Positions 4,223 through 27,171 of a DNA stretch of 39,301 nucleotides are shown here, one piece after another. The notes beneath the pieces were generated by a model. That model was not told where the DNA came from and ran no database searches. It worked only from the letters and a program-made list of their open reading frames with translations. The position numbers were made by a program, and so were the translations under genes. Source of the DNA: an uncultured Bacilli bacterium (lineage in GTDB: Bacteria > Bacillota_I > Bacilli_A > RF39 > UBA660); assembly GCA_947586825.1 (NCBI GenBank), contig CANPXU010000010.1, positions 1 to 39,301 on the forward strand, written 5' to 3'. Position 1 is the first letter of the stretch, and the number at the start of each line of letters is the position of its first letter.

Positions 4223-4522
4223 ATGTCAGATAGCGATATTGCAAGATTAAGAGAAATGTGCGCTGATTTTAAAAAATGGCGTGACTTAGAAACAGATGGA
4301 AACGGAAATAACTTGCATGATATTAAAAGTTCTTTTGATTATGTAAGAAATTCTTTAGAAACATACGAAATTTCATCAACAAAATTTGGTAGTAGCTTAT
4401 CTGCCAAAGCTGAAGCTGCAGGTAATGTATTAAGCGAATTATGGTTAATATTTCAAAACTTAGAAAATGCTGTAACATTATTCTGCGATGAACAAGCAAG
4501 AAATAATGGTCAAGGTAATTAA
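4223..4522 (+). CDS. Small helical protein, possibly WXG100/LXG-partner-like (pair 1, first gene)
   Basis: 99 residues, all-helical by composition, with no signal peptide and no membrane segment. Strong GAGAGGAG ribosome site; a TATGAT at 4187-4192 is the likely -10. A Gly/Asn turn (DGNGNN, residues about 26-31) splits two helices; W79 lies late in the long second helix. Size and hairpin shape are like ESAT-6/WXG100 or LXG-associated helical proteins, but a canonical W-x-G turn is missing. It is 23 bases upstream of a second small helical gene and shares its terminator. Function not recognised; secretion substrate or chaperone is only a possibility. Confidence 0.75.
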   Translation: MSDSDIARLREMCADFKKWRDLETDGNGNNLHDIKSSFDYVRNSLETYEISSTKFGSSLSAKAEAAGNVLSELWLIFQNLENAVTLFCDEQARNNGQGN

Positions 4523-4545
4523 TTTTAAGAAAGGAAAGTGATATT

Positions 4546-4884
4546 ATGGCAGCATCAAGAACTCCTGGAGCTACTATTCCAGAAGAATTACAAAGAGAAG
4601 CAGATAGAATTCAAGAACAATTTTCTCAATTACAAATAATATTAAATAATGCCGCTAGTCATTTAGCAGAAATGAGCACTATGATGCAACCTTACGATAC
4701 TACTTTAGCAGGCAAGATGGATGAGTTAAACCAAATAATCTCAGATTATGTGCCAAAAGCTAAAAATATTTATGATGATGTATCAGATAGCTTATCAGCA
4801 TATGCAGCAAATTTATCTTCTAGCTTAGAAAATTTAACAGGTGGAATTGATAAATTAAGATCTTCTGTTGATAACTTGGCGTAG
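4546..4884 (+). CDS. Small helical protein (pair 1, second gene)
   Basis: 112 residues. After an Ala/Pro-rich start it forms two amphipathic helices (about 12-45 and 55-110) around a YDTTLAGK turn, a WXG100-like helical hairpin shape without tryptophan. The C-terminal helix is rich in Ser/Leu/Asn with heptad spacing. AAAGGAAAGTGAT precedes the ATG. A strong terminator follows, so this gene and the previous one are a two-gene operon. No family recognised with confidence. Confidence 0.75.
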   Translation: MAASRTPGATIPEELQREADRIQEQFSQLQIILNNAASHLAEMSTMMQPYDTTLAGKMDELNQIISDYVPKAKNIYDDVSDSLSAYAANLSSSLENLTGGIDKLRSSVDNLA

Positions 4885-4911
4885 ATATTTTTTAAAGTTT
4901 TTAAGACAAGG

Positions 4912-4934
4912 CTATGTTTAAACATAGTTTTTTT
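4912..4934 (+). terminator. Rho-independent terminator
   Basis: Perfect 16-base palindrome (CTATGTTT/AAACATAG, 4912-4927) followed by a run of T. It separates the first small-helical pair from the second. Confidence 0.85.
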
Positions 4935-4990
4935 GTTGTATAATCAATGCAAAATATATTATAATTATCTTAGAAATGAGGCTTTTTAAG

Positions 4991-5251
4991 ATGCAATTTG
5001 AACCATATGAAATTGAAAAATTAACTGAAGAAATTGTGAATTTGAGTAAATTATTAACAGATGATACTACATATGAGCTCAATACCTCTTGTCAAAAATT
5101 AAACACCATAATTAATAATTTAAATATTAAAATTGATGTTGAAGAAAATTTTAGTAATTTAAAAAGTGCTATAAGTGATATTCAAAGTGATACTATTACA
5201 GCTTTAGACAATGTTAAAAATGATTTAGTATCTGGTAGTGGGGGAAATTAA
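4991..5251 (+). CDS. Small helical protein (pair 2, first gene)
   Basis: 86 residues from ATG 4991. An in-frame ATG 15 bases earlier (4976) has no ribosome site, whereas GAGG at 4978-4981 is well placed for 4991. The protein is two helices with Leu/Ile/Asn heptads, ending in a flexible SGSGGN tail, again without signal peptide or tryptophan. Candidate -10 boxes TATAAT lie at 4939-4944 and 4960-4965. The next gene begins 2 bases after the stop, so translation is probably coupled. Function unknown; general shape resembles the first pair. Confidence 0.7.
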   Translation: MQFEPYEIEKLTEEIVNLSKLLTDDTTYELNTSCQKLNTIINNLNIKIDVEENFSNLKSAISDIQSDTITALDNVKNDLVSGSGGN

Positions 5252-5253
5252 TC

Positions 5254-5604
5254 ATGAATATGGTAGAGTTTAAAAATTGTGCTATATCAGTAAAAACAAA
5301 TGGTCAATTATTAATTAATAAATATAAAAGTATTATCTTAATTCTTACAAATATTTATAATATTATCCAAAATAAACAACTTGCGAATGCTAAATATATT
5401 AGTGATTTAATCGAAAGATATAATGCATTAATAGAAACAATAACTACTAATTGTATAGAGCTTTCAGATAGAGTTGTTAAGTATGCTGATAACTTCTCTA
5501 ACAATTTAGAAGAATTTGCCTCTCGTATTAATGAATTGCTAAGAAATATAGATAGTCAATCAGTTAAACAAAATATTGAAACATTAGATATTGAATCTTT
5601 ATAA
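5254..5604 (+). CDS. Small helical protein (pair 2, second gene)
   Basis: 116 residues, predicted almost entirely helical, Ile/Asn-rich, with no signal peptide. Helices of about 20-45, 48-85 and 88-112 could form a bundle. A G-rich stretch at the end of the previous gene (5240-5244) may act as ribosome site; ATG 5260 is an alternative start. It ends in a strong terminator. It forms an operon with the preceding 86-residue protein, mirroring the arrangement of the first pair. Confidence 0.7.
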   Translation: MNMVEFKNCAISVKTNGQLLINKYKSIILILTNIYNIIQNKQLANAKYISDLIERYNALIETITTNCIELSDRVVKYADNFSNNLEEFASRINELLRNIDSQSVKQNIETLDIESL

Positions 5605-5607
5605 ATT

Positions 5608-5629
5608 ACTGACTTTATGTCAGTTTTTT
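5608..5629 (+). terminator. Rho-independent terminator
   Basis: ACTGAC (5608-5613), TTTAT loop, GTCAGT (5619-5624), then a T run. Confidence 0.85.
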
Positions 5630-8438: not shown

Positions 8439-9005
<567 letters not shown>

Positions 9006-9019
9006 CGAAAGGAGTCAAA

Positions 9020-9676
<657 letters not shown>

Positions 9677-15253: not shown

Positions 15254-15685
15254 ATGAAAAAAACTATAAAATATTTTGCTTTATTTATAGCTCTATTTTT
15301 AATAGCAATTCCATGTGCTTATGCTGCAAGTGCTTCAAAAAGCTATGTGGTATGTCATGATGCAAATGTTTTAAAAGGAATTAGAGTATTAGGCTACGTT
15401 GTGATGGCTTTAAAAATTTTGGCTCCGATTATTTTAATTATCATGGGTATGTATAGCTTTTTTAAAGCAACATTGGATGACGATGACAAAGCTACTAAAG
15501 AAGCCGCTAGATTATTATTTACTAAGTTTTGTGTAGCAGCAGGCATATTCTTTATTCCTACGATTATAAATGCAACTTTAAAATTAGTAAGTAACTATGA
15601 TAAAACAAATAATAAATATACCGAGTGTATGAAATGTATTACGTCGATTAAAGAATGTAACAATTTAATAACAAGATATAAGTAA
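15254..15685 (+). CDS. VirB2/TrbC-like pilin protein A
   Basis: 143 residues. Signal peptide 1 to about 25 (AYAAS), then two hydrophobic helices (about 42-67 and 92-112) around a short charged cytosolic loop (KATLDDDDKATKEAAR). That is the two-helix hairpin layout of VirB2 pilins, and gene order with VirB6, PrgI and VirB4 supports it. Extra features are an N-terminal C-H-D and a C-terminal Cys-rich segment (CMKCITSIKEC) that could form disulfides outside the cell. It shares spacing and motifs with the next gene. It has its own promoter and an AGGAAGG ribosome site. Confidence 0.75.
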   Translation: MKKTIKYFALFIALFLIAIPCAYAASASKSYVVCHDANVLKGIRVLGYVVMALKILAPIILIIMGMYSFFKATLDDDDKATKEAARLLFTKFCVAAGIFFIPTIINATLKLVSNYDKTNNKYTECMKCITSIKECNNLITRYK

Positions 15686-15691
15686 TAAATG

Positions 15692-15721
15692 TTTGTGATT
15701 ATTCACAAATGATAGTATAAT
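15692..15721 (+). promoter_or_regulatory. Promoter with an inverted repeat over the -35: probable operator of the T4SS operon
   Basis: TTTGTGA (15692-15698) and TCACAAA (15703-15709) form a perfect 7-base inverted repeat with a 4-base centre. Its left arm contains a TTGTGA -35, 17 bases before a perfect TATAAT (15716-15721). An inverted repeat without a following T-run, sitting on the -35, suggests a repressor site rather than a terminator. A second TATACT lies at 15728-15733. Confidence 0.5.
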
Positions 15722-15747
15722 TATTGTTATACTAGAGAGGTTTAGAT

Positions 15748-16152
15748 ATGAAAAAAGGTTTAGTAATTCTAGTGTTAGCATTATCCTTTTTTGGCTTTGT
15801 TTCTCTTGTAAGAGCCGACTCTGTAGGAAGCAGTGCTATTATCTCTTTAGCAGGAGATAATTCTCAAAATTGCAAGGCTTTATTTGGTGACCCTAATAAA
15901 GCAGGGGATTTTGCTTATTATTTACAAATAATTTTGGATGTTATCAAATATGCCGGAATTGTTCTTTGTATTGTTCTATCTGTTGTTGATTGGTTCAAGG
16001 CTCTACTTGGAGAAGACAAAGAAATGTATAAACCTCTTGCCAAGAAAATGGCTGCAAGAGTATTTTATGCTGTAGGTTTATGGTTTTTACCCGCGATAGT
16101 AAAGACACTACTTACATTACTAGATGTGTATGGAACATGTGGTATAGGATAG
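15748..16152 (+). CDS. VirB2/TrbC-like pilin protein B
   Basis: 134 residues. Signal peptide to about 23 (VRADS), then helices about 50-75 and 98-122 around a charged loop (KALLGEDKEMYKPLAKKMAAR). It aligns with the previous protein over the hairpin (both have an FKA motif before the acidic loop and FxPxIxxxxL in helix 2), so the two are paralogues. Two single Cys (N and C terminal) flank the hairpin. First gene of a continuous operon: 14 bases to the VirB6-like gene. Two pilin-type subunits in one system suggest a mixed fibre or a major and minor subunit; this is inference. Confidence 0.75.
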   Translation: MKKGLVILVLALSFFGFVSLVRADSVGSSAIISLAGDNSQNCKALFGDPNKAGDFAYYLQIILDVIKYAGIVLCIVLSVVDWFKALLGEDKEMYKPLAKKMAARVFYAVGLWFLPAIVKTLLTLLDVYGTCGIG

Positions 16153-16166
16153 GGTGAAGATAGCAT

Positions 16167-18314
16167 ATGTTTGATTTTATTCCTGAATTTTTCTGGAAAA
16201 TAATTATTTCTTTAGTTGGTGCTATATTCCAATTGGTAAATTATACTTACCAAGTCTTTTTGTTTTTAGCAGAAACTAATATTTTTGATCAAAGTATTTA
16301 TCATGATCTTACCGATAAGATATATGTTATTTTAGGTGTAGTTATGCTATTTGTAATAGCGTATAACATTTTAACTTTAGTAATTGATCCTGACAAAAAT
16401 GAAAAAGGTGCTACTATTGAAAAAATATTAAAAAACTTAGTAACATCCTTTATTATGATTATCATTTGTCCATCGATTTTCAATTTTGCATTTAGAGTTC
16501 AAAATTCAATATTAAGTACAAATGGAGGAATTATTACTAATTTCTTCTCCGATTCTATGCAAGATACAGGTGGTGCCGATAGTATAAAAGCTGGAGGAAG
16601 GAGAATGGCCGTTAATACATTTAAAGCATTCTTCGTACCAACTAGTGAAAACTATGGAATTGGCAGCAAGAGTGGTAATAGAAGTTATAAGCTTCCAGAT
16701 GGTACTATTATTGATTGTAGTAGCAGTTGTACTTTATCACAAGCCGAAAAGGCTGCGTTAGAACTCGGCTCTTTTGGCCCATTTAATTCATTTGCAATGA
16801 ATATTGTTAAAGATGAAGTTGAATTTAACTGGTTAATAGCTCTTATTGCAGGAGGCTATCTAGTTTATGTTATAGTTTCATTCTGTTTTGATTTGGCAGT
16901 TAGGGCGTGTAAGCTAGCTTTGTATCAGATTATTGCTCCTATAGCGATAGCTTGTCGTATTATCCCTAATCAAGAAGAAATATTTAGCAAATGGTTAAAA
17001 GCTGTTACTAAAACTTTCTTAGCTGTTTTTATACGAATAATTATTATGAATTTAGGAGTCTTTTTAATATCCGTATTTATTGAAAGTGATTTCTTCTCTG
17101 GATGTTCAGATTGTTCATTCGGAGTTAAATTAATTGGTTATGCTTTTATAATTTTAGGTATTGTTACCTTTATTAAACAAGCTCCAAAACTTATTGATGA
17201 TTTATTTGGCTTAGGAGAAGATGTAAGCCTAGGAATTAAAGATAAACTTAAGAACGCTAGCGTATTTACCGCAGGAGCCGCAATCGGAGCTGGTACAACA
17301 GCAATGGTTAGAAATGCAGGACACGCTATAAGCAATGTTAAAAATGCTAAAGGTGCAGGTGGAAAAGCTTATGCTTTAGGTCGAGGCGTTCTTAGTACTT
17401 TTGCAGGTGCTGGTTCAGGTCTTTATCATGGTTATAGACAAGGTGCTAATGCAGGAAACTTTACTGAAATGTCTGCTGCGGCCGGCAAAGGCGCTACTGC
17501 TACTACAGATGCAAGAGATACTCGTGAAGCAAGAAAGGACAGATACAAGGCTGCTCATCAAAATGTTGTTACAGGTCATTTATCCGATTGGAGAGCCGAT
17601 GTTAGAGATTGGGCAACTGGAGGCGCTGCAGAATATGAGGGTATCATTAAAGTTGCAGATCAATTTAAGAAATCACAAGATGATATGAATTCTGAAGCAG
17701 AAAAAGTTATGAATAAATTTAAAAATAATGTTAGCTTAAGAGCAGATATGTCTCTACATGATTTTCATGATAATCAAGCTTTAAAAAATTATTTTGATCA
17801 ATATGCTGCAGCTGGAGCATCTTTAGGTGCTATAGAAAGTGATATAAATCGGTTAAAAAATGTTACTGATACAGCTGAAATGGCAAGAGATTTGGGAATT
17901 GAGCGATCAGCATATGCATCTGATGCAGAATACAATGCAGCTTTAGCTACTGTTCCGGCAAGATTTGCTCAAAAAATTGCCGATTTGGATAGTATGTATA
18001 ATCAACTTTGGAAGAAATCTAGACTTAAAGTCGAAGATGCAGCAATGCATCCTAATGATGCCACTTATGCCATAACTGGTCTTGAGGCAAAAGACTTAGC
18101 TGCCACTAGAGCTAAAAGTGAAGAATTTAATGCTTTATATCAAGCTCATGGTGCTAACGTAAAAGATAAAGATGGTAATACTCTTAATACTAATACGGCT
18201 AAAGGTATTGATGATATAGCTGGCAAATACCAAGAAGAAGGTGCTGAAGCTAGAAGACAATCTGCTCGTGTAAGACAACAAGCTGAAGCTAGAAAAGGCG
18301 ATAGCAATAAATAA
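16167..18314 (+). CDS. VirB6/TrbL-like polytopic channel protein
   Basis: 715 residues. Membrane helices at about 10-35, 50-72, 86-108, 218-262, 280-306 and 320-345 with a soluble loop (about 109-215) after the third helix: the VirB6/TrbL pattern. The later helices carry the amphipathic R-A-C-K-L-A...QIIAPIAI segment typical of TrbL/VirB6. The last ~370 residues are soluble: an Ala/Gly-rich portion (about 372-440) and then coiled-coil helices rich in Ala/Asp/Lys, ending in KGDSNK. The tail is much longer than in VirB6 and may reach the VirB4/VirD4 ATPases in the cytosol. It is 15 bases upstream of the PrgI gene. Confidence 0.82.
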   Translation: MFDFIPEFFWKIIISLVGAIFQLVNYTYQVFLFLAETNIFDQSIYHDLTDKIYVILGVVMLFVIAYNILTLVIDPDKNEKGATIEKILKNLVTSFIMIIICPSIFNFAFRVQNSILSTNGGIITNFFSDSMQDTGGADSIKAGGRRMAVNTFKAFFVPTSENYGIGSKSGNRSYKLPDGTIIDCSSSCTLSQAEKAALELGSFGPFNSFAMNIVKDEVEFNWLIALIAGGYLVYVIVSFCFDLAVRACKLALYQIIAPIAIACRIIPNQEEIFSKWLKAVTKTFLAVFIRIIIMNLGVFLISVFIESDFFSGCSDCSFGVKLIGYAFIILGIVTFIKQAPKLIDDLFGLGEDVSLGIKDKLKNASVFTAGAAIGAGTTAMVRNAGHAISNVKNAKGAGGKAYALGRGVLSTFAGAGSGLYHGYRQGANAGNFTEMSAAAGKGATATTDARDTREARKDRYKAAHQNVVTGHLSDWRADVRDWATGGAAEYEGIIKVADQFKKSQDDMNSEAEKVMNKFKNNVSLRADMSLHDFHDNQALKNYFDQYAAAGASLGAIESDINRLKNVTDTAEMARDLGIERSAYASDAEYNAALATVPARFAQKIADLDSMYNQLWKKSRLKVEDAAMHPNDATYAITGLEAKDLAATRAKSEEFNALYQAHGANVKDKDGNTLNTNTAKGIDDIAGKYQEEGAEARRQSARVRQQAEARKGDSNK

Positions 18315-18329
18315 AAAGGAGGATAATTT

Positions 18330-18653
18330 GTGAATAATAATTATTTGGTTCCGGCTAATAGTAAAAAGTCCAAATTAATATTAGGCTTTTTTACTGTACC
18401 GGACTTGATAGTGTGTGGTATTGGCGGAGGACTTACACTCATGCTTTTAGTAATAATTCGTGACCCAGCAACATGGCAGCTTGTGTTAATGAGTTTACCT
18501 CTTTTGACAGCTGCTACTCTGGTTTTCCCTCTTGCAAATTATCACAACGTAAGACAATTATTAATAAATATATTTAATTTTGCCTTTGGCAGAAAAAAAT
18601 ATTATTGGAGAGGTTGGTGTGTGAAATATTACTATGACCCAAACAACAAATAA
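18330..18653 (+). CDS. PrgI-family conjugation membrane protein
   Basis: 107 residues. GTG start at 18330 with an excellent AAGGAGG site 8 bases upstream; no other start fits. The VPANSKKSK start, FFTVPDL, two membrane helices (about 25-47 and 52-68), and the C-terminal FGRKKYYWRG stretch are the PrgI/TcpE pattern. PrgI proteins are small inner-membrane parts of Gram-positive T4SS, nearly always just before VirB4, as here. The 3' end overlaps the next gene by 20 bases. Confidence 0.88.
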   Translation: MNNNYLVPANSKKSKLILGFFTVPDLIVCGIGGGLTLMLLVIIRDPATWQLVLMSLPLLTAATLVFPLANYHNVRQLLINIFNFAFGRKKYYWRGWCVKYYYDPNNK

Positions 18654-19200
18654 TAATCAAAATAGTGGTTCAAAATATGCTGAAGATTGGCTACCTATAA
18701 GAGATATAGCCAATGGTATGATTTATACCGATGATAAGTACTACGTTACAGGAGTAAAAATTAGCCCTCGTAATATCTTTATCTTGGACCAAAATTCACA
18801 AAATAATATCTTATATGAACTTGCTAATTTTTATAATACTATTGATTTTGAATTCTGGCTTTTAATAGCAGATAGACCTGTTGATATTGATGTATATCTT
18901 GCGACTCTTCAAGTACAATATAATCAAATCCAAAATGCTGCAATGCGAAAACTAATTATGCAAGATATTAATAAAGCTAATATGTTTATGTCTAGACAAT
19001 ATAGTGTTGTTGATACTGAATATTATATTTTATTTAAAGAAAAAAGAATGGAACTTGTTCAAAAGAAGATACACAATTTAATAAGTGGTCTTGCAAGCGC
19101 AGGATTACAATCTACACAAACAAGTAACAGTGATTTAAGAATGATTTTAGATAACTATCTAAATGATGGACAAAATACAGAGTTTGGGGCGGTGATGTAA
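18634..19200 (+). CDS. VirB4/TraE N-terminal domain as a separate protein
   Basis: 188 residues, matching the first part of TraE/VirB4-type ATPases: the DWLPIRDI opening, FILD, FEFWLLIADRPVDID, the YxxLFKEKR loop and a late helical end. No Walker motif is present; these lie in the next gene. The stop TAA is followed by a single T and then the ATG of the second part, so the two are made from one mRNA in near-equal amounts, probably by reinitiation. The start is inside the PrgI gene and has no strong ribosome site of its own, so it depends on upstream translation. Confidence 0.82.
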   Translation: MTQTTNNNQNSGSKYAEDWLPIRDIANGMIYTDDKYYVTGVKISPRNIFILDQNSQNNILYELANFYNTIDFEFWLLIADRPVDIDVYLATLQVQYNQIQNAAMRKLIMQDINKANMFMSRQYSVVDTEYYILFKEKRMELVQKKIHNLISGLASAGLQSTQTSNSDLRMILDNYLNDGQNTEFGAVM

Positions 19201-19201
19201 T

Positions 19202-20995
19202 ATGGCAAATGATCAAATAAAAAGTGAAGTAGCTCCAAAAGGAATGTACTTTAAACCTACCGAGTTTATGCTTGGAGGAACTTATTATACAATTATGACA
19301 ATTGTATCTTATCCAAGAAATATATTCCCTGGTTATTTAGCAGGTATTACTAATATGGAAGGCGTAAGACTTGCTATTAAACATATTCCTATTTCTTTTG
19401 AGATACTTAAGAAAATGCTTAATAAAGAAATCGCAGATTTAAAGTCTAGATATCAATCTGAAAAAGATCAAACAACCCAAGAAAAAATAAGACAAGACTA
19501 TGAATCTCTAGAGCAATTTATATCATTCTTAGCTTCAACACAAGCAAGAATCTTTGATTTCCAAATGCACATTATGATTTCTGGTGATAATAAAGAAGAG
19601 CTAGAACTTAGAAAGATGCAAGTTAGAAATTACTTGGATGCCTTAGGAATGAGAGGCGTATCTTTAATGTTTGAACAAGAAAAAGCCTTAAAGAGTATTA
19701 TTCCTATATTCCCTGCCCAAGATATTGAAGATAGAGTAGGTATTCCACTTCCATCTGTTACTTTAGCAGGTATGTATCCATTTGTATTTGATAGTATAAA
19801 AGACCCAGGTAATGGTACTCTTCTTGGTATTGATGCATCTGGTGGAGTTGTATTATTTAACCAATTCTTATATCAAGAAAAGAAGGAAAATAACCGTAAT
19901 AATGCCAATATGATTATTCTTGGTACTTCTGGTTCAGGTAAATCAACAGCTGCGAAATTAATGCTTAGAACTCATCTTAGAAATGGCCTAAAATGTGTAT
20001 GTATCGACCCTGAAGGCGAGCTTGAAGACTTAGTTAACTTCGTTCATGGTGATTTCTTAAGCCTTGGTAAAGGTGGAGAGTTTGGTATGATTAACCCTCT
20101 TGAAATCGTAAGTGATAGTGATGATGAAGAGATTTCCCAAGGCCTTGGTTATACTGTTTTAACTAGAGCTTTACAACAAGTTAAAGCTTTCATGAAATAC
20201 TATAATCCTTCGATTGAAGAAGATGTTCTTACATTATTCTCTGAAGTTTTACAAGATACTTATAAGAGATTTAAAATAGATTTCAATACTGATTTTACTA
20301 AACTTACTAGTGCTGATTTCCCTACATTTGATGATGTATATGCTACTATCAAGGGAAGACTATTATCTATGACAAATGCTACTCATGAAAGAGATATCAT
20401 GGAAAGACTAGAGCTTAAGATAAGACCTTTAGTAAAAGAATTAAGATACTATTTCACAGGTAAGACTACTCTTCAAATAGATAGTGATTTTATTGTATTT
20501 AATATAAGAGAACTTATGAATAGTGATGAAAATATTAAGAATGCTTTATTCTTTAATATATTAAAATATGCATGGGGCTTATGTTTGGATAAAGACATTA
20601 ATACTGTCATGATGGTTGATGAAGCCCATGTTCTATTATCTAATCATAATGAACTTGGTGCTGAATTCTTAGCTCAAATCCAAAGAAGATCTCGTAAGTA
20701 CAATACTGGTACTATTATAATAACTCAACAACCTACAGACTTCGCAGCTCCAAATCTAATAATGCATGGTAAAGCTATATTTGATAATGCTTCTTATTAC
20801 TTAGTAATGGGTCTTCGTAAACAAGCAGTTGAAGATTTATCTAAACTTGTTGATTTAAATGATAATGAAAAAGAAGCTATTAAATACTATAATCAAGGAG
20901 ATGCTCTATTTATATGTGGTAATCGAAGAATGAATATGAGGGTTGTAGCTACCCAAGAAGAATTAGATTCACTTGGTAGTGGTGGAGGACTATAA
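19202..20995 (+). CDS. VirB4/TraE ATPase, C-terminal part
   Basis: 597 residues. Residues 1-230 hold the second half of the VirB4 N-terminal domain (SYPRNIFPGYL, IKHIPISF). The RecA-like motor follows: Walker A GTSGSGKS (241-248), Walker B VDEAH (D473, E474) and a TQQPTDF segment (about 507-513). It is the secretion and assembly ATPase of the T4SS, docked on the inner membrane. With the preceding 188-residue ORF it makes a full-size VirB4 (785 residues together). Downstream is the wall hydrolase, 30 bases away. The boundary falls in a linker between the two N-terminal subdomains. Confidence 0.92.
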   Translation: MANDQIKSEVAPKGMYFKPTEFMLGGTYYTIMTIVSYPRNIFPGYLAGITNMEGVRLAIKHIPISFEILKKMLNKEIADLKSRYQSEKDQTTQEKIRQDYESLEQFISFLASTQARIFDFQMHIMISGDNKEELELRKMQVRNYLDALGMRGVSLMFEQEKALKSIIPIFPAQDIEDRVGIPLPSVTLAGMYPFVFDSIKDPGNGTLLGIDASGGVVLFNQFLYQEKKENNRNNANMIILGTSGSGKSTAAKLMLRTHLRNGLKCVCIDPEGELEDLVNFVHGDFLSLGKGGEFGMINPLEIVSDSDDEEISQGLGYTVLTRALQQVKAFMKYYNPSIEEDVLTLFSEVLQDTYKRFKIDFNTDFTKLTSADFPTFDDVYATIKGRLLSMTNATHERDIMERLELKIRPLVKELRYYFTGKTTLQIDSDFIVFNIRELMNSDENIKNALFFNILKYAWGLCLDKDINTVMMVDEAHVLLSNHNELGAEFLAQIQRRSRKYNTGTIIITQQPTDFAAPNLIMHGKAIFDNASYYLVMGLRKQAVEDLSKLVDLNDNEKEAIKYYNQGDALFICGNRRMNMRVVATQEELDSLGSGGGL

Positions 20996-21025
20996 TAATT
21001 TGAATTAGTAAGGTGGTGATGAGTT

Positions 21026-23632
21026 TTGAATCCTAAAAATGGGCAAGAAGTACAGCAAAATACTGCAAATGTGGGGATAAATCAACCTAAAAAAGATTTA
21101 AGAAACCCTGATTCAAGCTCACCAACTATTGATGTTGAAGTTCAAATTAAATCCCAAAAAAGAGGTAAAGGAGTTCCTTCTTCAACGAGAATTATCGACG
21201 ATAACTCACCCTATAGAGCAAATGGTAGTACTCTAGATGATGATTCTATAGAAGTCGAAGAGGAAGAAATCCCCGAAGTACAAGAAGAATCCCCAAGTTG
21301 GGAACAATTAACTAAAGAAAAATATGCTGAAGCTGCAGAAAAAGCTAAGCAAACAAATAAAAAAGTAGCCAAGACAGCTGTTAAAGGAGTGGCTACTTAT
21401 TTTGGTGGACCAGCAGGAGAAGCTATTGCGGATACAGCCAATAATTCTGGCGTTTTGGATCCGGTATATGATAAAATCGCGGATACATCAGCTAAAGTAA
21501 TGGATTCAAATCCTTTAGCTCGCCAAGTTCAAAATAAACTTAATGAGGCTGATGACTCTGGTGCTTTAGATGCTGCTGATAGTGCTATAAGTATGATTGG
21601 CGGTAATGCCCCTTCTGCTACTAAAGCTGCTACGCAAGCAACTGGTGCTGCTAAGGCAGGAGCTCAAGCTAGCACTGAGGCTGCAAATGCAACTTCGAAT
21701 GCTACCAGTACTACGGCAAGAAGTCCTAGGATGGGCGGTAATAGGCAAACACCTAATGCTGGTGCTCCTGAAGATACTGCAGCAAAAACTGGTGATACTG
21801 CTAGCCCTGATACAGGTGGCAAACAAAAAGCTACATCTGATAATAAAAAACAAGCAGCTAACCGAGTAAGCGAAGCTATTCAAAAAAAGAAAGAGAAGAA
21901 AGAAAAAGAAAAGAAAAAGGGGCGCTTAATTAACTTCCTTAGAAGTAATCCTACACTTGTTGTCATTTTACTTGCCGCTGGGTTATTAGCTTTATTATTT
22001 ATTTTACTTATGGCTTTGCTTTTAGGAGAAGGCGGGGTACTTGAAAACTATGATTCAATGACTTCTAACCTGGATGATAGATATGATTTTACAAAAACAA
22101 ATGTTACTTTAACTAATTCTTATACTAATGAACAAGATCGGGTACAAATTCAGGAATTGATGCTTGAAGATTTAATAAAAGGTGCAGCTTATGCGGAACT
22201 ATATAATAGTTTGTCAGGTTTGACTAGAGAACAAATGGTAGAACTATTCTCTTCGAATATGGTAGTTTTTAGAGCTTTAGCTCTTAATATTGGTAAGTAT
22301 GATAGTACTACTAAAAGTATAGAAATACAAAGTGGTGACAAAGGTGTTCCATATTGTGATATTACAAATGGTTGTGATATTGTCTCTAGTAATGGTTTAA
22401 TAACATACTTAATAAGTTCTTATAATGGTACTTTAAAAGGTAGCGTTACAAGTTCAATACCTCCAGCAAGTGGCGATGTTTTAATGGCTTTAACGGAAGC
22501 CTATGCCAATACAGCATATTTAATTTTAGTTCCTAATACATTTGATGGAGTTTTAACTAGTTATAATTTTGGTAATCCACCATATAATCAAACAATTAGA
22601 CAAAATATGGTTACTAAAGCTAAGAATAACAAAAAATACGATACAATTATTAAAGAAATTAGTGATTATAATAATTATAAAATATATGATTTAAAAAGCG
22701 CTGTAATGTCTTATAGTTATGGTAGCAGTAATAATTATTGGTGGCCAATTGGTGGCAGTCAAGATAGTTCAGGCCTTTATAGTGGTACAACATCATGGAC
22801 GAGTATATCATCACCATATGGATCAAGAATCCATCCTATAAGTGGAAAACAATCGTTCCACTCCGGAATCGATATACCGGCATCACAAGGTACGCCTATA
22901 ATTGCTACAAGGTCAGGTACGGTAACAATAGCTACCTATAATAGTAGTTATGGTAATTATGTTGAAATAAACCATGGTGATGGTACCTCATCAAGGTATG
23001 CTCATATGATGAATGGTGGTATACTTGTTAAAGTAGGAGATACCGTAAGACAGGGGCAAATCATTGGTAAAGTTGGTACAACTGGAGCATCAACAGGTAA
23101 TCACTTACATTTTGAAATAAGAATTGATGGTCAAACAACTAATCCGACAGAATACGTTAGTGCTCAAAATCAAAGGCCAAAGGAAATTACTACTGTTGTT
23201 GGTGTTAAGGGATCAAATAATACTCAATCAGTATGTTTGACCTTAAAAAATGCGGGATTTTCTAATAATGCAGTTGCGGCAATAATGTCGAATATGTATC
23301 GTGAAAGTAACTTTAAACTAACAGCTTTAGGTGACCATGGTACAAGTTATGGATTATGTCAATGGCATAATGGTAGATATACTAATTTGCGAAATTATTG
23401 TGGCAGTAGATTAAATACGGTTGAATGTCAAATTGATTTCTTAATATATGAACTTAAAAATTCTTATAAAGGAGTATATAATTATTTATTATCGAATAAT
23501 AGTGCTAATAGTATGACATCTTATTTCTGTATTCACTTTGAAAGCCCTGCGAATAAGTATGTAGGATGTCCACAAAGAGCTAATTCATATAGTGCATCAT
23601 ATTTAAATTATGTTAATAATGGATGTAGATAA
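21026..23632 (+). CDS. VirB1-like bifunctional wall hydrolase: M23 peptidase plus tail-lysozyme domain
   Basis: 868 residues; TTG start at 21026 with AAGGTGGTGA 6 bases before it (an ATG nearby is out of frame). A long cytosolic N-terminus (about 1-300) is acidic, then Ala/Thr-rich, then a KEKKEKEKKK stretch. One TM segment (about 310-332) follows. Outside: a helical spacer, LytM/M23 domain (about 600-710; H612, D616, H660, H693 and H695 of HLHFE), then a phage-tail-lysozyme-like domain (about 728-868) with probable catalytic E760 in YRESNF. It cuts both stem peptides and glycan to let the T4SS pass the wall. Cys in the outer domains may pair. Confidence 0.92.
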   Translation: MNPKNGQEVQQNTANVGINQPKKDLRNPDSSSPTIDVEVQIKSQKRGKGVPSSTRIIDDNSPYRANGSTLDDDSIEVEEEEIPEVQEESPSWEQLTKEKYAEAAEKAKQTNKKVAKTAVKGVATYFGGPAGEAIADTANNSGVLDPVYDKIADTSAKVMDSNPLARQVQNKLNEADDSGALDAADSAISMIGGNAPSATKAATQATGAAKAGAQASTEAANATSNATSTTARSPRMGGNRQTPNAGAPEDTAAKTGDTASPDTGGKQKATSDNKKQAANRVSEAIQKKKEKKEKEKKKGRLINFLRSNPTLVVILLAAGLLALLFILLMALLLGEGGVLENYDSMTSNLDDRYDFTKTNVTLTNSYTNEQDRVQIQELMLEDLIKGAAYAELYNSLSGLTREQMVELFSSNMVVFRALALNIGKYDSTTKSIEIQSGDKGVPYCDITNGCDIVSSNGLITYLISSYNGTLKGSVTSSIPPASGDVLMALTEAYANTAYLILVPNTFDGVLTSYNFGNPPYNQTIRQNMVTKAKNNKKYDTIIKEISDYNNYKIYDLKSAVMSYSYGSSNNYWWPIGGSQDSSGLYSGTTSWTSISSPYGSRIHPISGKQSFHSGIDIPASQGTPIIATRSGTVTIATYNSSYGNYVEINHGDGTSSRYAHMMNGGILVKVGDTVRQGQIIGKVGTTGASTGNHLHFEIRIDGQTTNPTEYVSAQNQRPKEITTVVGVKGSNNTQSVCLTLKNAGFSNNAVAAIMSNMYRESNFKLTALGDHGTSYGLCQWHNGRYTNLRNYCGSRLNTVECQIDFLIYELKNSYKGVYNYLLSNNSANSMTSYFCIHFESPANKYVGCPQRANSYSASYLNYVNNGCR

Positions 23633-23641
23633 GGAGGATTT

Positions 23642-24622
23642 ATGCGAAACGATAAAGTATATATTGCTGTTTTAGCAGTAATTGCTATTCTACTTGGAGT
23701 TTTGGTTTTTGCTTATTTTAATATTTCTAAGAACGAAGGATTTGGCTTAGGAAATAGTAGTTCTGAAAATAGTAATATTAATAAAAATACGACTACTAAT
23801 CAAGAAAATGGTGGATCAAAACCGATTGGCGAAATAACGAGTCTACCAGTAGATCCTCATGAAAAAATTCCTCTAGCAGAGGTTACTGACTATACAGAAT
23901 TTTTCAATGTTAACAATATTCTAAATATGTTTTATAGTTTAGTAGCTAATCGAAATAGTAAGAGTATTATCAATGTTTTTGATGCCGACTATATTGAAAA
24001 GAATAATATAACAGTAGATAACTTAACTCAGTATGTAAATAGTAAATATGATGAGATAACTTTCTATTCTAAAGAAATGTATCGTAAAGGCCAAAATGGG
24101 GTTAGATATTATTTTGTTAGAGGAGAACTTCAAAACTATAATTTTGCTTCTGAAATATTATCTGAAGCTGAAAATGTAAGTATTTTAGTAATAATTGACT
24201 TTAATAATGACTGCTTTAGCATAGTCCCAATTGCTAACGAAGGCGATTTATATGAGTTTGCTCAAGGTTATAATATTAATACGGCTAAGAGGCTAACAAG
24301 AAATGAAAATAATGATTATAATGAACAAACATATAATGATGAAATAATAAGTATTAACTATATAAGATATTTCCAAAATATGCTTTATTTAAATACTGCT
24401 AAAGCATATGATATGTTATCTGATGAAACAAAAGCTAAATACCCAAAACTTGAGAACTTCTCTGATGATTTGGAAAATGTTTATAGTGGAATAACTTCAA
24501 GAATTCAAAGCTATGGTACCAAAGGTGATAATGGCCATAGAATGTATTCGATTATCATGAATAATGATAAAGAAATTATTTTCAATGAAGAATCTATAAT
24601 GAATTTTAAAGTTACACTTTAA
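23642..24622 (+). CDS. Membrane-anchored VirB8/TcpC-like protein
   Basis: 326 residues. One N-terminal TM (about 8-27), a Ser/Asn/Thr linker of about 50 residues, then two alpha/beta regions (about 85-195 and 230-326) that each start with long helices (ILNMFYSLVANRNSKSIINV and RYFQNMLYLNTAKAYDML) and continue in strands, as in NTF2-like repeats. Gram-positive T4SS use VirB8-like proteins (TcpC) with this layout, and this gene ends the operon after VirB4 and the wall hydrolase. Assignment is by architecture and context. GGAGG lies before the ATG. Confidence 0.7.
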   Translation: MRNDKVYIAVLAVIAILLGVLVFAYFNISKNEGFGLGNSSSENSNINKNTTTNQENGGSKPIGEITSLPVDPHEKIPLAEVTDYTEFFNVNNILNMFYSLVANRNSKSIINVFDADYIEKNNITVDNLTQYVNSKYDEITFYSKEMYRKGQNGVRYYFVRGELQNYNFASEILSEAENVSILVIIDFNNDCFSIVPIANEGDLYEFAQGYNINTAKRLTRNENNDYNEQTYNDEIISINYIRYFQNMLYLNTAKAYDMLSDETKAKYPKLENFSDDLENVYSGITSRIQSYGTKGDNGHRMYSIIMNNDKEIIFNEESIMNFKVTL

Positions 24623-24624
24623 CG

Positions 24625-24647
24625 AGCCATTTTTTATGGCTTTTTTT
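24625..24647 (+). terminator. Rho-independent terminator of the T4SS operon
   Basis: AGCCAT (24625-24630), TTTTT loop, ATGGCT (24636-24641), then T7. It ends the operon running from the pilin gene at 15748 to the VirB8-like gene. Confidence 0.85.
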
Positions 24648-24681
24648 GTTTCTTTTTGTAGTAGTATCACGATAATTGTAG

Positions 24682-24687
24682 TATAAT
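24682..24687 (+). promoter_or_regulatory. -10 box of the VirD4 gene
   Basis: Perfect TATAAT with a G-T-A lead, 24 bases before the ATG, followed by an AAAGGAG ribosome site. The -35 is not clear. Confidence 0.5.
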
Positions 24688-24711
24688 AAAAAAGAGTTTA
24701 AAGGAGAAGAC

Positions 24712-27171
24712 ATGGGTTTTAAAGTAACAAAAAAAGATTTATTACTATTTTGTTTATATTGTATCTTGCTACTTTATTTTTGCGCAATTGCTGTTTTAAA
24801 TTTTGCGTCTTTTTCTAATGATGGAACCTTTTATGGCTTACTTCCTTTTAAAGCTTTTTCATTTGAATATATAGGTTATACTTTAGCTTTATTTGTAGCG
24901 GTTTTAATATTAATATTCTCAAGTGTATCTTCTTATATTTTTAATAAAGATAAGGGATCATTTGGTATTCATATTGGTGATAAGGGTAGTGATGGTTACT
25001 CTAAATGGGCTAGTGAAAAAGATATTAAGACCGATAAAAATATTGTTAGAGTAGTGCCTTCGGACAAAACTTTGGAGGCTGCGGGTATTCCTCTTATCAA
25101 TAAAGGTAATGAGATATGGGTAGATAATGGAGAATATCATAACCTAGTAATCGGAGCTACTGGTTCAGGTAAAACAGAGTGTGTCGTTAAGCCTCTTGTT
25201 AACTTACTTTCTAAAAAAGGCGAAAGTATGGTTATTACTGACCCTAAAGGTGAAATATATGAATATTGTGGCGAATATTTAAGAAGCCAAGGATATCGAA
25301 TTATTATTCTTAACTTCCGTGAACCTGAAAAAGGTAATGCTTGGAACCCTTTGAGTCTTCCATACCAATATTATAAATCTGGTAATACCGATAAAGGTAT
25401 TGAACTTCTAGATGACGTTGCTCTTAATATTTTGTACAACAAAGATGGTGGTAAAGATAGTGAATTCTGGGAAAAGAGTGCAGCTGACTACTTCTCAGGT
25501 CTTGCTTTAGGTCTATTCATGGATGCTAAAGAAAAAGAAGTTAACTTAAATAGTATTAACATAATGTCAACAGTCGGAGATGAAAGAAGAGGAACAACTC
25601 CTTATATTAAAGAGTATTTCCATTTAAAAGGTGAAAGCTCTGCTCCTTATATTTTTGCCTCTAATACAATTAATGCTCCCAATGATACTAAGGGTGGTAT
25701 CTTATCAACATTTAGACAAAAGATAAGACTTTTCTCAACCAGAGAAAGTTTAAGTGAAATGCTTTCATATTCTGATTTTGATATGCGGGATATAGGTAAA
25801 CAAAAAACAGCCGTTTTCATGATTATTCATGATGAAAAGAAAACATATCATGGTCTTATGACTATTTTTGTTAAACAATGTTATGAAACCTTAATTGATT
25901 GTGCGCAAAAAAATGGTGGTAAACTTGAATATCGTACTAACTTCATTCTTGATGAGTTCCCTAACATGCCACCACTTAAAGATGTTGACTCCATGGTTAC
26001 AGCAGCTCGTAGTAGGGATATAAGATTTACCTTTATTATCCAAAACTTTGCCCAATTAGATGATGTATATGGAGAAGAAGTTGCTCAAGTTATTAAAGGT
26101 AACTGTGGTAATTTAATATACCTAATTTCTACTGAACTTAAAGCTTTGGAAGAAATCAGTAAAATGTGTGGTGAAGTAAAGTCTAAGAAAGATGATAAGA
26201 CGGCATCAACACCACTTATAACGGTATCAGACTTACAAAAATTAAAATTATTCCAAGCTATAATTATCAGATGGCGTAAAAATCCATTTAAAACTCAACT
26301 TACACCAGACTTTAAAATAGACTGGGGTACCAATTATGGTAAAGCAACACTTCCTACGAGAGAAAAACAACCAATTGAAATATTTGATATTAAGGCTTTT
26401 GTTAATGAGCAAATGAAAGATCAAGCGCTTAATAATCCAGGTATGAAAGCACCAGGAGCTAACCCTTTCTTACAACCAGGATATAATCCATTCTTACAAA
26501 ATAGTGCTCCAAGAAATCCTTTTGTATCTGATACACCAAAACCTGGTACAAGCAATCCATTTTTAAATTCTACCCCATCTTCTAATCCAACAAATCCATT
26601 AATGGGTAGTAATCCGGCGCTTAATGCGAATAATCCATTTATGAATAATAATTCTACTCCAATGATGAATAATCCATTTGTTAATAATCAACCATCTCAA
26701 ACTCCAAGTGTGCCTACACCGGCTTCAAATAACACACTTAATACTAATCCGTTTGCAAATAATGGCTTTAATCCATATGCTAATTTAACCAATAAAGATA
26801 TTGACGATATGGTTAAGAATATTGAAAAGAAACTTGCTCAACTTGATGCCGAAGAAGCTGCGGAAAAGGCTAAACAAGAACAAGAAAAAACTAAGATTAC
26901 CGATGTTGAATCTAAATTGGAACTGCCAAAAACGACTGAACCTGAAATAAAAACTATTTTTGAACCTGAAGTTAAGGATGAAGATTTAACTTTTGCTCAA
27001 TCTGAAGTAAAAAAAGAAACAGCAAAGGATGATGCTCTAGATTTAACTCAAGAAATTAAGCTTGATGATATATCTAAACCCAAAATTAATGTTGATAAAG
27101 ATAGTGTGATTGTAAATGATAACGTAGTGACGGATGATGAATTTTATGATGATTTCTTTGATGATGAATAA
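24712..27171 (+). CDS. VirD4/TcpA-type T4SS coupling ATPase with an NPF-rich tail
   Basis: 819 residues. Two N-terminal TM helices (about 7-30 and 46-70), then the TraG/VirD4 motor: Walker A GATGSGKT (148-155), ITDPKGEIYEYCG, Walker B LDEFPNMPP (D414, E415) and FIIQNFAQL. These proteins select and hand substrates to the T4SS. The catalytic core ends at about residue 560; the last 260 residues are disordered: about seven NPF triplets plus NPL/NPY (about 580-690), then an acidic Lys/Glu region ending DDDFFDDE-like (exact end DEFYDDFFDDE). The tail likely binds substrates or partners. It is a separate transcript from the main operon. Confidence 0.93.
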   Translation: MGFKVTKKDLLLFCLYCILLLYFCAIAVLNFASFSNDGTFYGLLPFKAFSFEYIGYTLALFVAVLILIFSSVSSYIFNKDKGSFGIHIGDKGSDGYSKWASEKDIKTDKNIVRVVPSDKTLEAAGIPLINKGNEIWVDNGEYHNLVIGATGSGKTECVVKPLVNLLSKKGESMVITDPKGEIYEYCGEYLRSQGYRIIILNFREPEKGNAWNPLSLPYQYYKSGNTDKGIELLDDVALNILYNKDGGKDSEFWEKSAADYFSGLALGLFMDAKEKEVNLNSINIMSTVGDERRGTTPYIKEYFHLKGESSAPYIFASNTINAPNDTKGGILSTFRQKIRLFSTRESLSEMLSYSDFDMRDIGKQKTAVFMIIHDEKKTYHGLMTIFVKQCYETLIDCAQKNGGKLEYRTNFILDEFPNMPPLKDVDSMVTAARSRDIRFTFIIQNFAQLDDVYGEEVAQVIKGNCGNLIYLISTELKALEEISKMCGEVKSKKDDKTASTPLITVSDLQKLKLFQAIIIRWRKNPFKTQLTPDFKIDWGTNYGKATLPTREKQPIEIFDIKAFVNEQMKDQALNNPGMKAPGANPFLQPGYNPFLQNSAPRNPFVSDTPKPGTSNPFLNSTPSSNPTNPLMGSNPALNANNPFMNNNSTPMMNNPFVNNQPSQTPSVPTPASNNTLNTNPFANNGFNPYANLTNKDIDDMVKNIEKKLAQLDAEEAAEKAKQEQEKTKITDVESKLELPKTTEPEIKTIFEPEVKDEDLTFAQSEVKKETAKDDALDLTQEIKLDDISKPKINVDKDSVIVNDNVVTDDEFYDDFFDDE

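What the first reader, a model, noticed from the sequence alone, without database searches (positions are those of the whole stretch)
4223..5604. Two tandem pairs of small helical proteins without a visible T7SS motor
Four proteins of 86-116 residues, all helical, no signal peptide, arranged as two bicistronic units each ended by a strong terminator. Size and hairpin shape are like WXG100/LXG-partner proteins, but W-x-G is absent and no EssC/FtsK-type ATPase is in the window. They might be substrates or chaperones of the T4SS 10 kb away, or a separate family.
Basis: inference. Interest (0 to 1): 0.55.

Follow-up and report, generated by a model that had tools for sequence, protein, structure and literature searches.

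The report
Orphan type VII secretion helper pairs
Four small genes in an uncultured gut bacterium form two pairs of helical proteins that most likely serve, as export partners, a type VII secretion motor encoded elsewhere in the same genome, although they lack the usual W-x-G signature of such proteins.

Summary
The four small proteins are real genes in the order A1-B1-A2-B2. The "missing motor" is an effect of the window: the same draft genome has a full EssC ATPase and four WXG100 proteins on another contig. The cassette is kept in four genomes of the genus; B2 is a distant paralogue of B1. Related A-B pairs occur in five more genera of the family. All 9 verified pair genomes in a 386-genome sample have EssC (base rate 196 of 386). 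In G332 (another genus) A1-B1 lie directly downstream of essC, and PF06013 finds no WXG100 protein in that 93%-complete genome. In G401 an A-like and a weakly B-like protein lie directly upstream of essC. None of the four window proteins reaches a Pfam or NCBIfam cut-off. A1 has a conserved hinge [TS]-x-[FYWIV]-G and an F-x-D-x-Q end, where (by the model) WXG100/Lap proteins carry W-x-G and FxxxD. Best reading: A-B heterodimers are EssC-dependent export partners (EsxA/EsxB-like cargo, or Lap-like adaptors). Secretion and dimerisation are untested. A link to the window's T4SS has no support but was only weakly tested. New variant of a known kind.

The parts
4223..4522 (+). A1, 99 aa helical protein; conserved hinge T53-x-F55-G56 and C-terminal F87-x-D89-x-Q91
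4546..4884 (+). B1, 112 aa, two predicted helices; conserved N-terminal E[LI]xRxxxR[IVL]xEQ
4912..4927 (+). weak hairpin followed by a T-run after B1
   Evidence: z -1.70; not listed by the terminator scan
4991..5251 (+). A2, 86 aa (91 aa if the upstream ATG at 4976 is used), partner gene of B2
5254..5604 (+). B2, 116 aa, distant paralogue of B1
   Evidence: (hhalign of the 10-row B1 family with B2, probability 89-93%); the 4-row comparison gave 23.8%, E 8.4e-4
5608..5624 (+). intrinsic terminator after B2
   Evidence: z -3.83

Best explanation
A1-B1 and A2-B2 are two duplicated two-gene units of a WXG100-like family tied to type VII secretion (EssC). Each A and its B most likely form a helical heterodimer in the cytoplasm. 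The heterodimer is presented to the EssC ATPase encoded on another contig, through a composite signal made of the A hinge ([TS]-x-hydrophobic-G) and the A C-terminal F-x-D-x-Q. It is then exported as small cargo (EsxA/EsxB-like; about 0.44 of the 0.66), or serves as a Lap-like adaptor for a cargo encoded elsewhere (about 0.22 of the 0.66). Shown: genes, order, homology of B1 and B2, co-occurrence with EssC, adjacency to essC in G332. Inferred: duplication of the A half, dimerisation, recognition by EssC, export.
For: EssC and WXG100 proteins in the same genome. The four-gene order is kept in 4 of 10 genomes of the genus (own included); all 4 have EssC, as do 8 of the 10. In G332 the A1-B1 homologues (40% and 28% identity) lie directly downstream of essC, and PF06013 finds no WXG100 in that genome. 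All 9 of 9 verified pair genomes in the 386-genome family sample have EssC over cut-off, base rate 196 of 386 (P = 0.002 by genomes, about 0.017 by the 6 genera). In G401 an A-like protein (E = 1.4e-7) and a weakly B-like one (E = 0.013) lie directly upstream of essC. In all 10 pair loci the A-like ORF lies directly before B (B hits inside long unrelated ORFs were set aside). The 5-row B profile ranks, after the family and window B2, 13 further proteins up to rank 25, of which 10 are from EssC loci (that protein set was rich in EssC loci). PF06013 is a weak match (E up to 0.1, best 0.0019) of 5 of 10 B members. The A1 model aligns with a CFP-10/ESAT-6 chain at Z 7.8, rmsd 2.6, 90 residues. The A hinge and end motifs sit where Lap1/DUF3130 has DxxTxxxGN and FxxxD.
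Against: Profile links to the lineage's own WXG100 groups are not significant (hhalign probability at most 15% for A1 and 7% for B1). W-x-G is absent and the conserved C-terminal site is FxDxQ, not hydrophobic-xxx-D. Coiled-coil families match the B family as often as PF06013 does. In the window and in 8 of the 10 other pair loci (the essC-side pair of G401 counted) the pairs are not beside essC; in G140 the pair lies at a contig end. 187 of the 196 EssC genomes of the sample have no verified pair. In G332's genus the A protein was found in 1 of 36 genomes, and G128 of that genus has EssC but no A match. The co-occurrence is modest once kinship is allowed for. The A1 fold match is tied with unrelated bundles and B1 has no Foldseek match. 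Models are shallow (4 sequences; pLDDT 75 and 78, pTM 0.54 and 0.34).
Confidence: 0.66

Rival explanations
1. Lap-like adaptors: the pairs are not cargo but targeting factors that dock a larger T7SS toxin (LXG-like) to EssC, as Lap1/Lap2 or EsxBCD do. This is a part of the 0.66 given to the best explanation, not an addition to it.
For: Two or three small helical partners per cargo, some without WXG, is the known pattern (passages). A1 has a Lap1-like hinge and end motif and a long last helix. The own genome has an 868-aa protein of unknown family and a DUF4176 gene at the EssC locus; DUF4176 proteins are described as toxin chaperones (passage).
Against: The Laps described lie next to their toxin; I saw no large helical-headed gene beside the pairs (by eye), except that the G192 neighbour is an incomplete 390-aa repeat-rich ORF that I did not examine. 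No DUF3130 or DUF3958 match for the four window proteins or for 10 A members.
Confidence: 0.22
2. Chaperones or substrates of the T4SS in the window (15254-27171).
For: Within 10 kb in the window; TrbC/VirB2-like small membrane proteins also lie about 5 kb from the pair in G332 (L049:734-2961, by eye).
Against: No T4SS genes seen beside the cassette in G007 or G006 in the DNA fetched; G009 cannot tell, since its contig ends 3 kb downstream. This is a weak test and I raised the odds from 0.05 to 0.07 on checking it. The only direct neighbour that I could assign to a secretion system is essC.
Confidence: 0.07
3. Cytoplasmic helical proteins of another function (for example a regulator or a stress protein) that are near essC by chance in G332.
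For: Most pair loci lie among genes that look like housekeeping genes (by eye); sequence scores to unrelated coiled coils are as high as to WXG100.
Against: Adjacency to essC in G332, a second, remote instance in G401, 9 of 9 co-occurrence with EssC.
Confidence: 0.16

Closest known systems
WXG100 / ESAT-6 family (EsxA, EsxB; PF06013, TIGR03930)
   Same: Size about 100 aa, helical prediction, two-gene units, direct neighbours of essC in G332.
   Different: No W-x-G; FxDxQ in place of hydrophobic-xxx-[DE] at the conserved C-terminal site; no profile match at cut-off.
Lap1/Lap2 (DUF3130 = TIGR04197; DUF3958), LXG-associated helical proteins
   Same: Two small non-WXG helical proteins; A1 has a Thr..Gly hinge motif and a Phe..Asp motif near the end of the long last helix, as described for Lap1 (PMC9600955, passages).
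   Different: Spacing differs (TxxG instead of TxxxGN, FxDxQ instead of FxxxD); no LXG-like gene seen next to them; no match to the family models.
S. aureus EsxB/EsxC/EsxD partner proteins (PMC10653861, passages)
   Same: Small helical hairpins, EsxC and EsxD not annotated as WXG100, working with an EssC system.
   Different: Those lie next to their toxin esaD; here the pairs are mostly orphans.
T7SSc-T7SSj variant clusters (PMC11217815, abstract, passages and section 15)
   Same: EssC/TsxC as the core, mostly with a YukD-like TsxB.
   Different: All the subtypes described there contain a WXG100 protein; in G332 the essC neighbours are a non-WXG100 pair and no PF06013 match is found.

Membership tests
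WXG100 (PF06013 / TIGR03930) | Profile match at the curated cut-off | tested here: not met
   B1 15.9 bits vs cut-off 27.3 (Pfam) and 15.9 vs 44.85 (NCBIfam); A1, A2, B2 not listed up to E 1
WXG100 (PF06013 / TIGR03930) | W-x-G at the hairpin hinge | tested here: not met
   No W-x-G in any of the four; the A family has [TS]-x-[FYWIV]-G at the model's hinge
WXG100 (PF06013 / TIGR03930) | About 100-residue helix-turn-helix | tested here: inconclusive
   A1 and B1 predicted helical at pLDDT 75 and 78, pTM 0.54 and 0.34; A1 aligns with 3fav_C at Z 7.8 but tied with unrelated bundles; A2, B2 not modelled
Lap1 / DUF3130 / TIGR04197 | Profile match | tested here: not met
   None of 10 A-family members lists a T7SS model, up to E 0.1 in Pfam and E 1 in NCBIfam; the four window proteins list no DUF3130/TIGR04197 model up to E 1 (for B1 in Pfam the best 25 of 29 families were shown)
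Lap1 / DUF3130 / TIGR04197 | FxxxD near the end of helix 2 | tested here: not met
   Conserved motif is FxDxQ (F 9 of 10, D 9 of 10, Q 10 of 10); an FxxxE at F77 of A1 is not conserved
Lap1 / DUF3130 / TIGR04197 | Encoded with and binding an LXG protein | tested here: inconclusive
   No LXG-like gene seen by eye next to the pairs, but some contigs are short and the G192 neighbour is incomplete; binding not testable
EssC-dependent T7SS substrate or partner (function) | Genome carries EssC | tested here: met
   9 of 9 verified pair genomes in the 386-genome sample, and G009
EssC-dependent T7SS substrate or partner (function) | Export depends on EssC | not testable with these tools
   needs a secretion assay
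EssC-dependent T7SS substrate or partner (function) | Heterodimer of the two neighbours | not testable with these tools
   only single chains can be modelled here

The most novel reading that the evidence does not exclude
In some members of this Bacilli family a non-WXG100 heterodimer (A-B) has replaced EsxA, the substrate held to be universal in T7SSb, as the sole small partner of EssC, using a different two-part signal (hinge [TS]-x-hydrophobic-G plus C-terminal F-x-D-x-Q). The duplicated orphan pairs of the window are further substrates that spread away from the essC locus.
Probability: 0.25. Interest if true: 0.68.

Novelty: new variant of a known kind. Interest (0 to 1): 0.45.

Why it matters
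EsxA is described as universally secreted by T7SSb (PMC13355648, abstract), and a WXG100 protein as present in all the new T7SS subtypes listed in 2024 (PMC11217815, abstract). A genome with EssC but only this pair would test whether W-x-G is needed for recognition by EssC. The family also gives annotators a way to recognise orphan T7SS partners that existing models miss.

Tried and rejected
Pfam and NCBIfam: no match at cut-off for the four window proteins. The wider A family was scanned with both, the wider B family with Pfam only (98 families listed at E up to 0.1, 25 shown, mostly coiled coils). PADLOC gave weak hits only (best E 3.3e-4, ZorA), read as coiled-coil noise. Sequence search of the PDB with the A and B profiles returned chemoreceptors, designed bundles and keratins, some at E below 1e-5, read as coiled-coil noise. 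Foldseek: A1 best E 1.1, B1 no match. VIA: A1 Z up to 8.1 with unrelated bundles, nothing to align for B1. A1 and A2 show no profile similarity (under 1%). A2 and B2 were not searched for across genomes.

Weak genome hits rejected: G339 (C43) and G260 for A1 lie in giant sigma-factor-like ORFs; G196 lies in an unrelated ORF; G023, G079, G207, G271 for B1 lie in long ORFs, and I saw no small A-like gene beside them (short loci). G371 (a 298-aa helical ORF followed by two small helical ORFs) was left unresolved and not counted.

No relative by a pattern scan of viral contigs with the A1 alignment or by tblastn of B1 against plasmids. Circularity check: the five distant A-like ORFs were first picked by their place before B. 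The 5-row A1 profile alone ranks four of the five next after its own rows (E 7e-5 to 2e-3) and misses L094 (E 2.6, rank 66); leave-out profiles recover all five, and G332 (E 5.2e-8 or better). The G401 essC-side A is missed by the 5-row profile (E 0.56) and found by the 10-row one (1.4e-7); its B partner is weak with both (0.022 and 0.013).

Full report
What was claimed.

Check of the observation. Four + strand ORFs are there: A1 4223-4522 (99 aa), B1 4546-4884 (112 aa), A2 4976-5251 (91 aa; 86 aa from the ATG at 4991, which follows GAGG) and B2 5254-5604 (116 aa). Gaps are 23, 91 and 2 bases. They are kept in the same order in G009, G006 and G007. Between the window and G006 dN/dS is 0.20, 0.23, 0.18 and 0.15 for A1, B1, A2, B2, so these are proteins under purifying selection; towards G007 the values are 0.48 to 1.14, at high divergence where they mean little. 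None holds W-x-G or Y-x-x-x-[DE]. The terminator after B2 is good, the hairpin after B1 weak.

The motor. The window is contig C10 of a 1.2-Mb, 51-contig, 82%-complete draft genome. A search of that genome finds a full EssC (1026.6 bits, cut-off 778.4) on contig C26. Around it lie four WXG100 proteins over the Pfam cut-off, a DUF4176 protein and an 868-aa protein without a Pfam match. An 88-aa YukD-like protein is named by eye from its place and size; it has no Pfam match. EssC itself carries FtsK/SpoIIIE domains. So the absence of a motor is an effect of the window edge.

Relatives of the cassette. Among 60 genomes (own, 9 of the genus, 27 of the family, 23 of the class) A1 is found in 4 and B1 in the same 4, plus a B1 hit in G023 that lies in a long unrelated ORF. 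All four are of the genus. A scan of the GTDB contigs gave three contigs, labelled uncultured Bacilli bacterium with isolate names beginning 'Lapin' (that this means rabbit is my reading). They match G009, G006 and G007 in contig number and length. The surroundings differ: a DUF218 gene upstream and a 280-aa protein downstream in the window; another gene upstream in G009; a DUF218-like gene upstream and an F-type ATPase operon downstream in G006; a dehydrogenase-like and an rRNA methyltransferase-like gene in G007 (names other than DUF218 of the window and ATP synthase c are by eye). Four genes that stay together while the neighbours change probably act together.

Duplication. The B1 family and B2 are homologous: hhalign probability 89-93%, 97 columns, and the 5-row B1 profile finds window B2 at E = 7e-5, next after the B family. 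A first hhalign run with 4 rows gave 23.8%, E 8.4e-4. A1 and A2 show no profile similarity. So A2-B2 is most simply a duplicated A-B unit whose A half has drifted beyond detection; that last step is inference.

Link to EssC. With the A1 profile, 6 of 386 family genomes matched: three of the genus, two spurious hits and G332. In G332 the A1-B1 homologues (40% and 28% identity to the window) are the two genes directly downstream of essC; an 84-aa YukD-like gene (by eye; no Pfam match) is on its other side. PF06013 finds no WXG100 protein in G332 (93% complete) at E 0.001, while it finds 4-5 each in G006, G007 and G009. A search of 385 genomes of the order with a 5-row A1 profile gave 5 hits, four of them the ones known and one spurious. 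In G332's genus the A protein was found in 1 of 36 genomes, and G128 of that genus has EssC without it. With the B1 profile, 14 of 386 matched; nine have a small A-like ORF directly upstream (G000, G006, G007, G332, G401, G192, G339, G140, G123), five were set aside. All nine, and G009 outside that sample, have EssC over the cut-off. The base rate in the same 386 genomes is 196. The chance of 9 of 9 is 0.002 by genomes and about 0.017 by six genera; relatedness makes even the latter optimistic. Within the genus 8 of 10 genomes have EssC and the 4 with the cassette are among them, which alone says little. I then read the essC surroundings of five pair genomes besides G332: in G401 a 109-aa protein that matches the 10-row A profile (E = 1.4e-7, not in the profile) and a 113-aa protein with a weak B match (0.013) lie directly upstream of essC; the other four show no A-like protein. 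Of 31 distinct EssC loci read (23, L005, L049 and six), two, G332 and G401, have an A-like protein at E below 1e-3 (the G332 row is in the profile).

Motifs and fold. In the ten-member A family, F38, G56 and Q91 are invariant, and F87 and D89 are present in 9 of 10. G56 sits in [TS]-x-[FYWIV]-G at the turn into the long last helix of the A1 model (helices 3-25, 31-47, 54-96; pLDDT 75, pTM 0.54), and F-x-D-x-Q lies near the end of that helix. In Lap1/DUF3130 a DxxTxxxGN hinge motif and an FxxxD end motif have been described, the latter needed for export of the partner toxin (PMC9600955, passages). EsxA uses W-x-G plus a hydrophobic-xxx-D (PMC13355648, abstract and passages). The A family has motifs in the same places with other letters and spacing. 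This is a resemblance, not a membership: no profile match exists and the exact motifs are not met. The B family has an N-terminal E[LI]xRxxxR[IVL]xEQ. The A1 model aligns with a CFP-10/ESAT-6 chain at Z 7.8, rmsd 2.6, 90 residues, but unrelated bundles score the same; B1 gave no Foldseek match.

Mechanism. Most likely A and B of each unit dimerise and are recognised by EssC through the A hinge and end motifs, and are exported as small cargo, as EsxA/EsxB are. The main alternative within the same frame is a Lap-like adaptor role for a cargo encoded elsewhere; against it, I saw no large helical-headed gene beside the pairs in the loci read, G332 included, with the G192 neighbour incomplete. A T4SS role has no support beyond distance, but was only weakly tested.

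Novelty. Small helical T7SS partners without W-x-G are known (Laps, EsxC/EsxD). What is new here is a two-gene family outside those models, mostly orphan and once duplicated, and a genome in which it is the only small partner found at essC. Searches of the paper library for T7SS together with RF39 and uncultured, or with metagenome-assembled genomes, EssC and WXG100, returned nothing. A search for three of the terms type VII secretion, orphan, WXG100-like and bicistronic returned 11 papers, 10 listed, of which I read only the listing. I therefore do not claim that nothing is in print.

Limits. All genomes are drafts; absence of a gene is provisional. The models rest on four sequences. The co-occurrence is modest once kinship is counted. 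Secretion and binding are untested.

Noticed in passing
L038:2889-7139 (G006 contig C28): An F1 ATPase alpha-like ORF of 1416 aa carries a long, repeat-rich C-terminal extension of about 900 residues (by eye), in an operon with a c subunit (PF00137) downstream of the cassette.
   Followed up: partly
L094:2477-3268 (G123): The B-family protein of G123 is 263 aa long: after the B-like part it has an extension with two similar repeats (MNGDY.DS.GT..NNLDGT). A B protein fused to a possible passenger.
   Followed up: no
L005:6622-9228 (own genome, contig C26): 868-aa protein with a repetitive middle (TDPSQTTDPSQT, DDYQGEDNTQGPGE) next to a DUF4176 gene at the EssC locus; no Pfam match. A candidate T7SS cargo.
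   Followed up: partly
window 15254-27171: Conjugation/T4SS-like operon: VirB4-like 19202-20995, VirD4-like 24712-27171, a peptidoglycan hydrolase-like protein 21026-23632 (names by eye).
   Followed up: no
L049:734-2961 and L110:14269-14691: Small TrbC/VirB2-like membrane proteins, like window 15254-15685, also lie within a few kb of essC in G332 and G192 (by eye); chance or a shared neighbourhood is open.
   Followed up: no
window 8460-9676: Two collagen-like proteins rich in Gly-Pro-Thr-Gly repeats.
   Followed up: no
L050:1827-8936 and L051:7038-11702: RpoD-like sigma factor heads fused to very long helical tails (2369 and 1554 aa) next to a tyrosyl-tRNA synthetase-like gene in two relatives (by eye).
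   Followed up: no
L106:6373-8034 (G339): In the essC-upstream slot where G401 has the A-B-like pair, G339 of the same genus has two other proteins (255 and 248 aa): the slot appears to swap its content.
   Followed up: no
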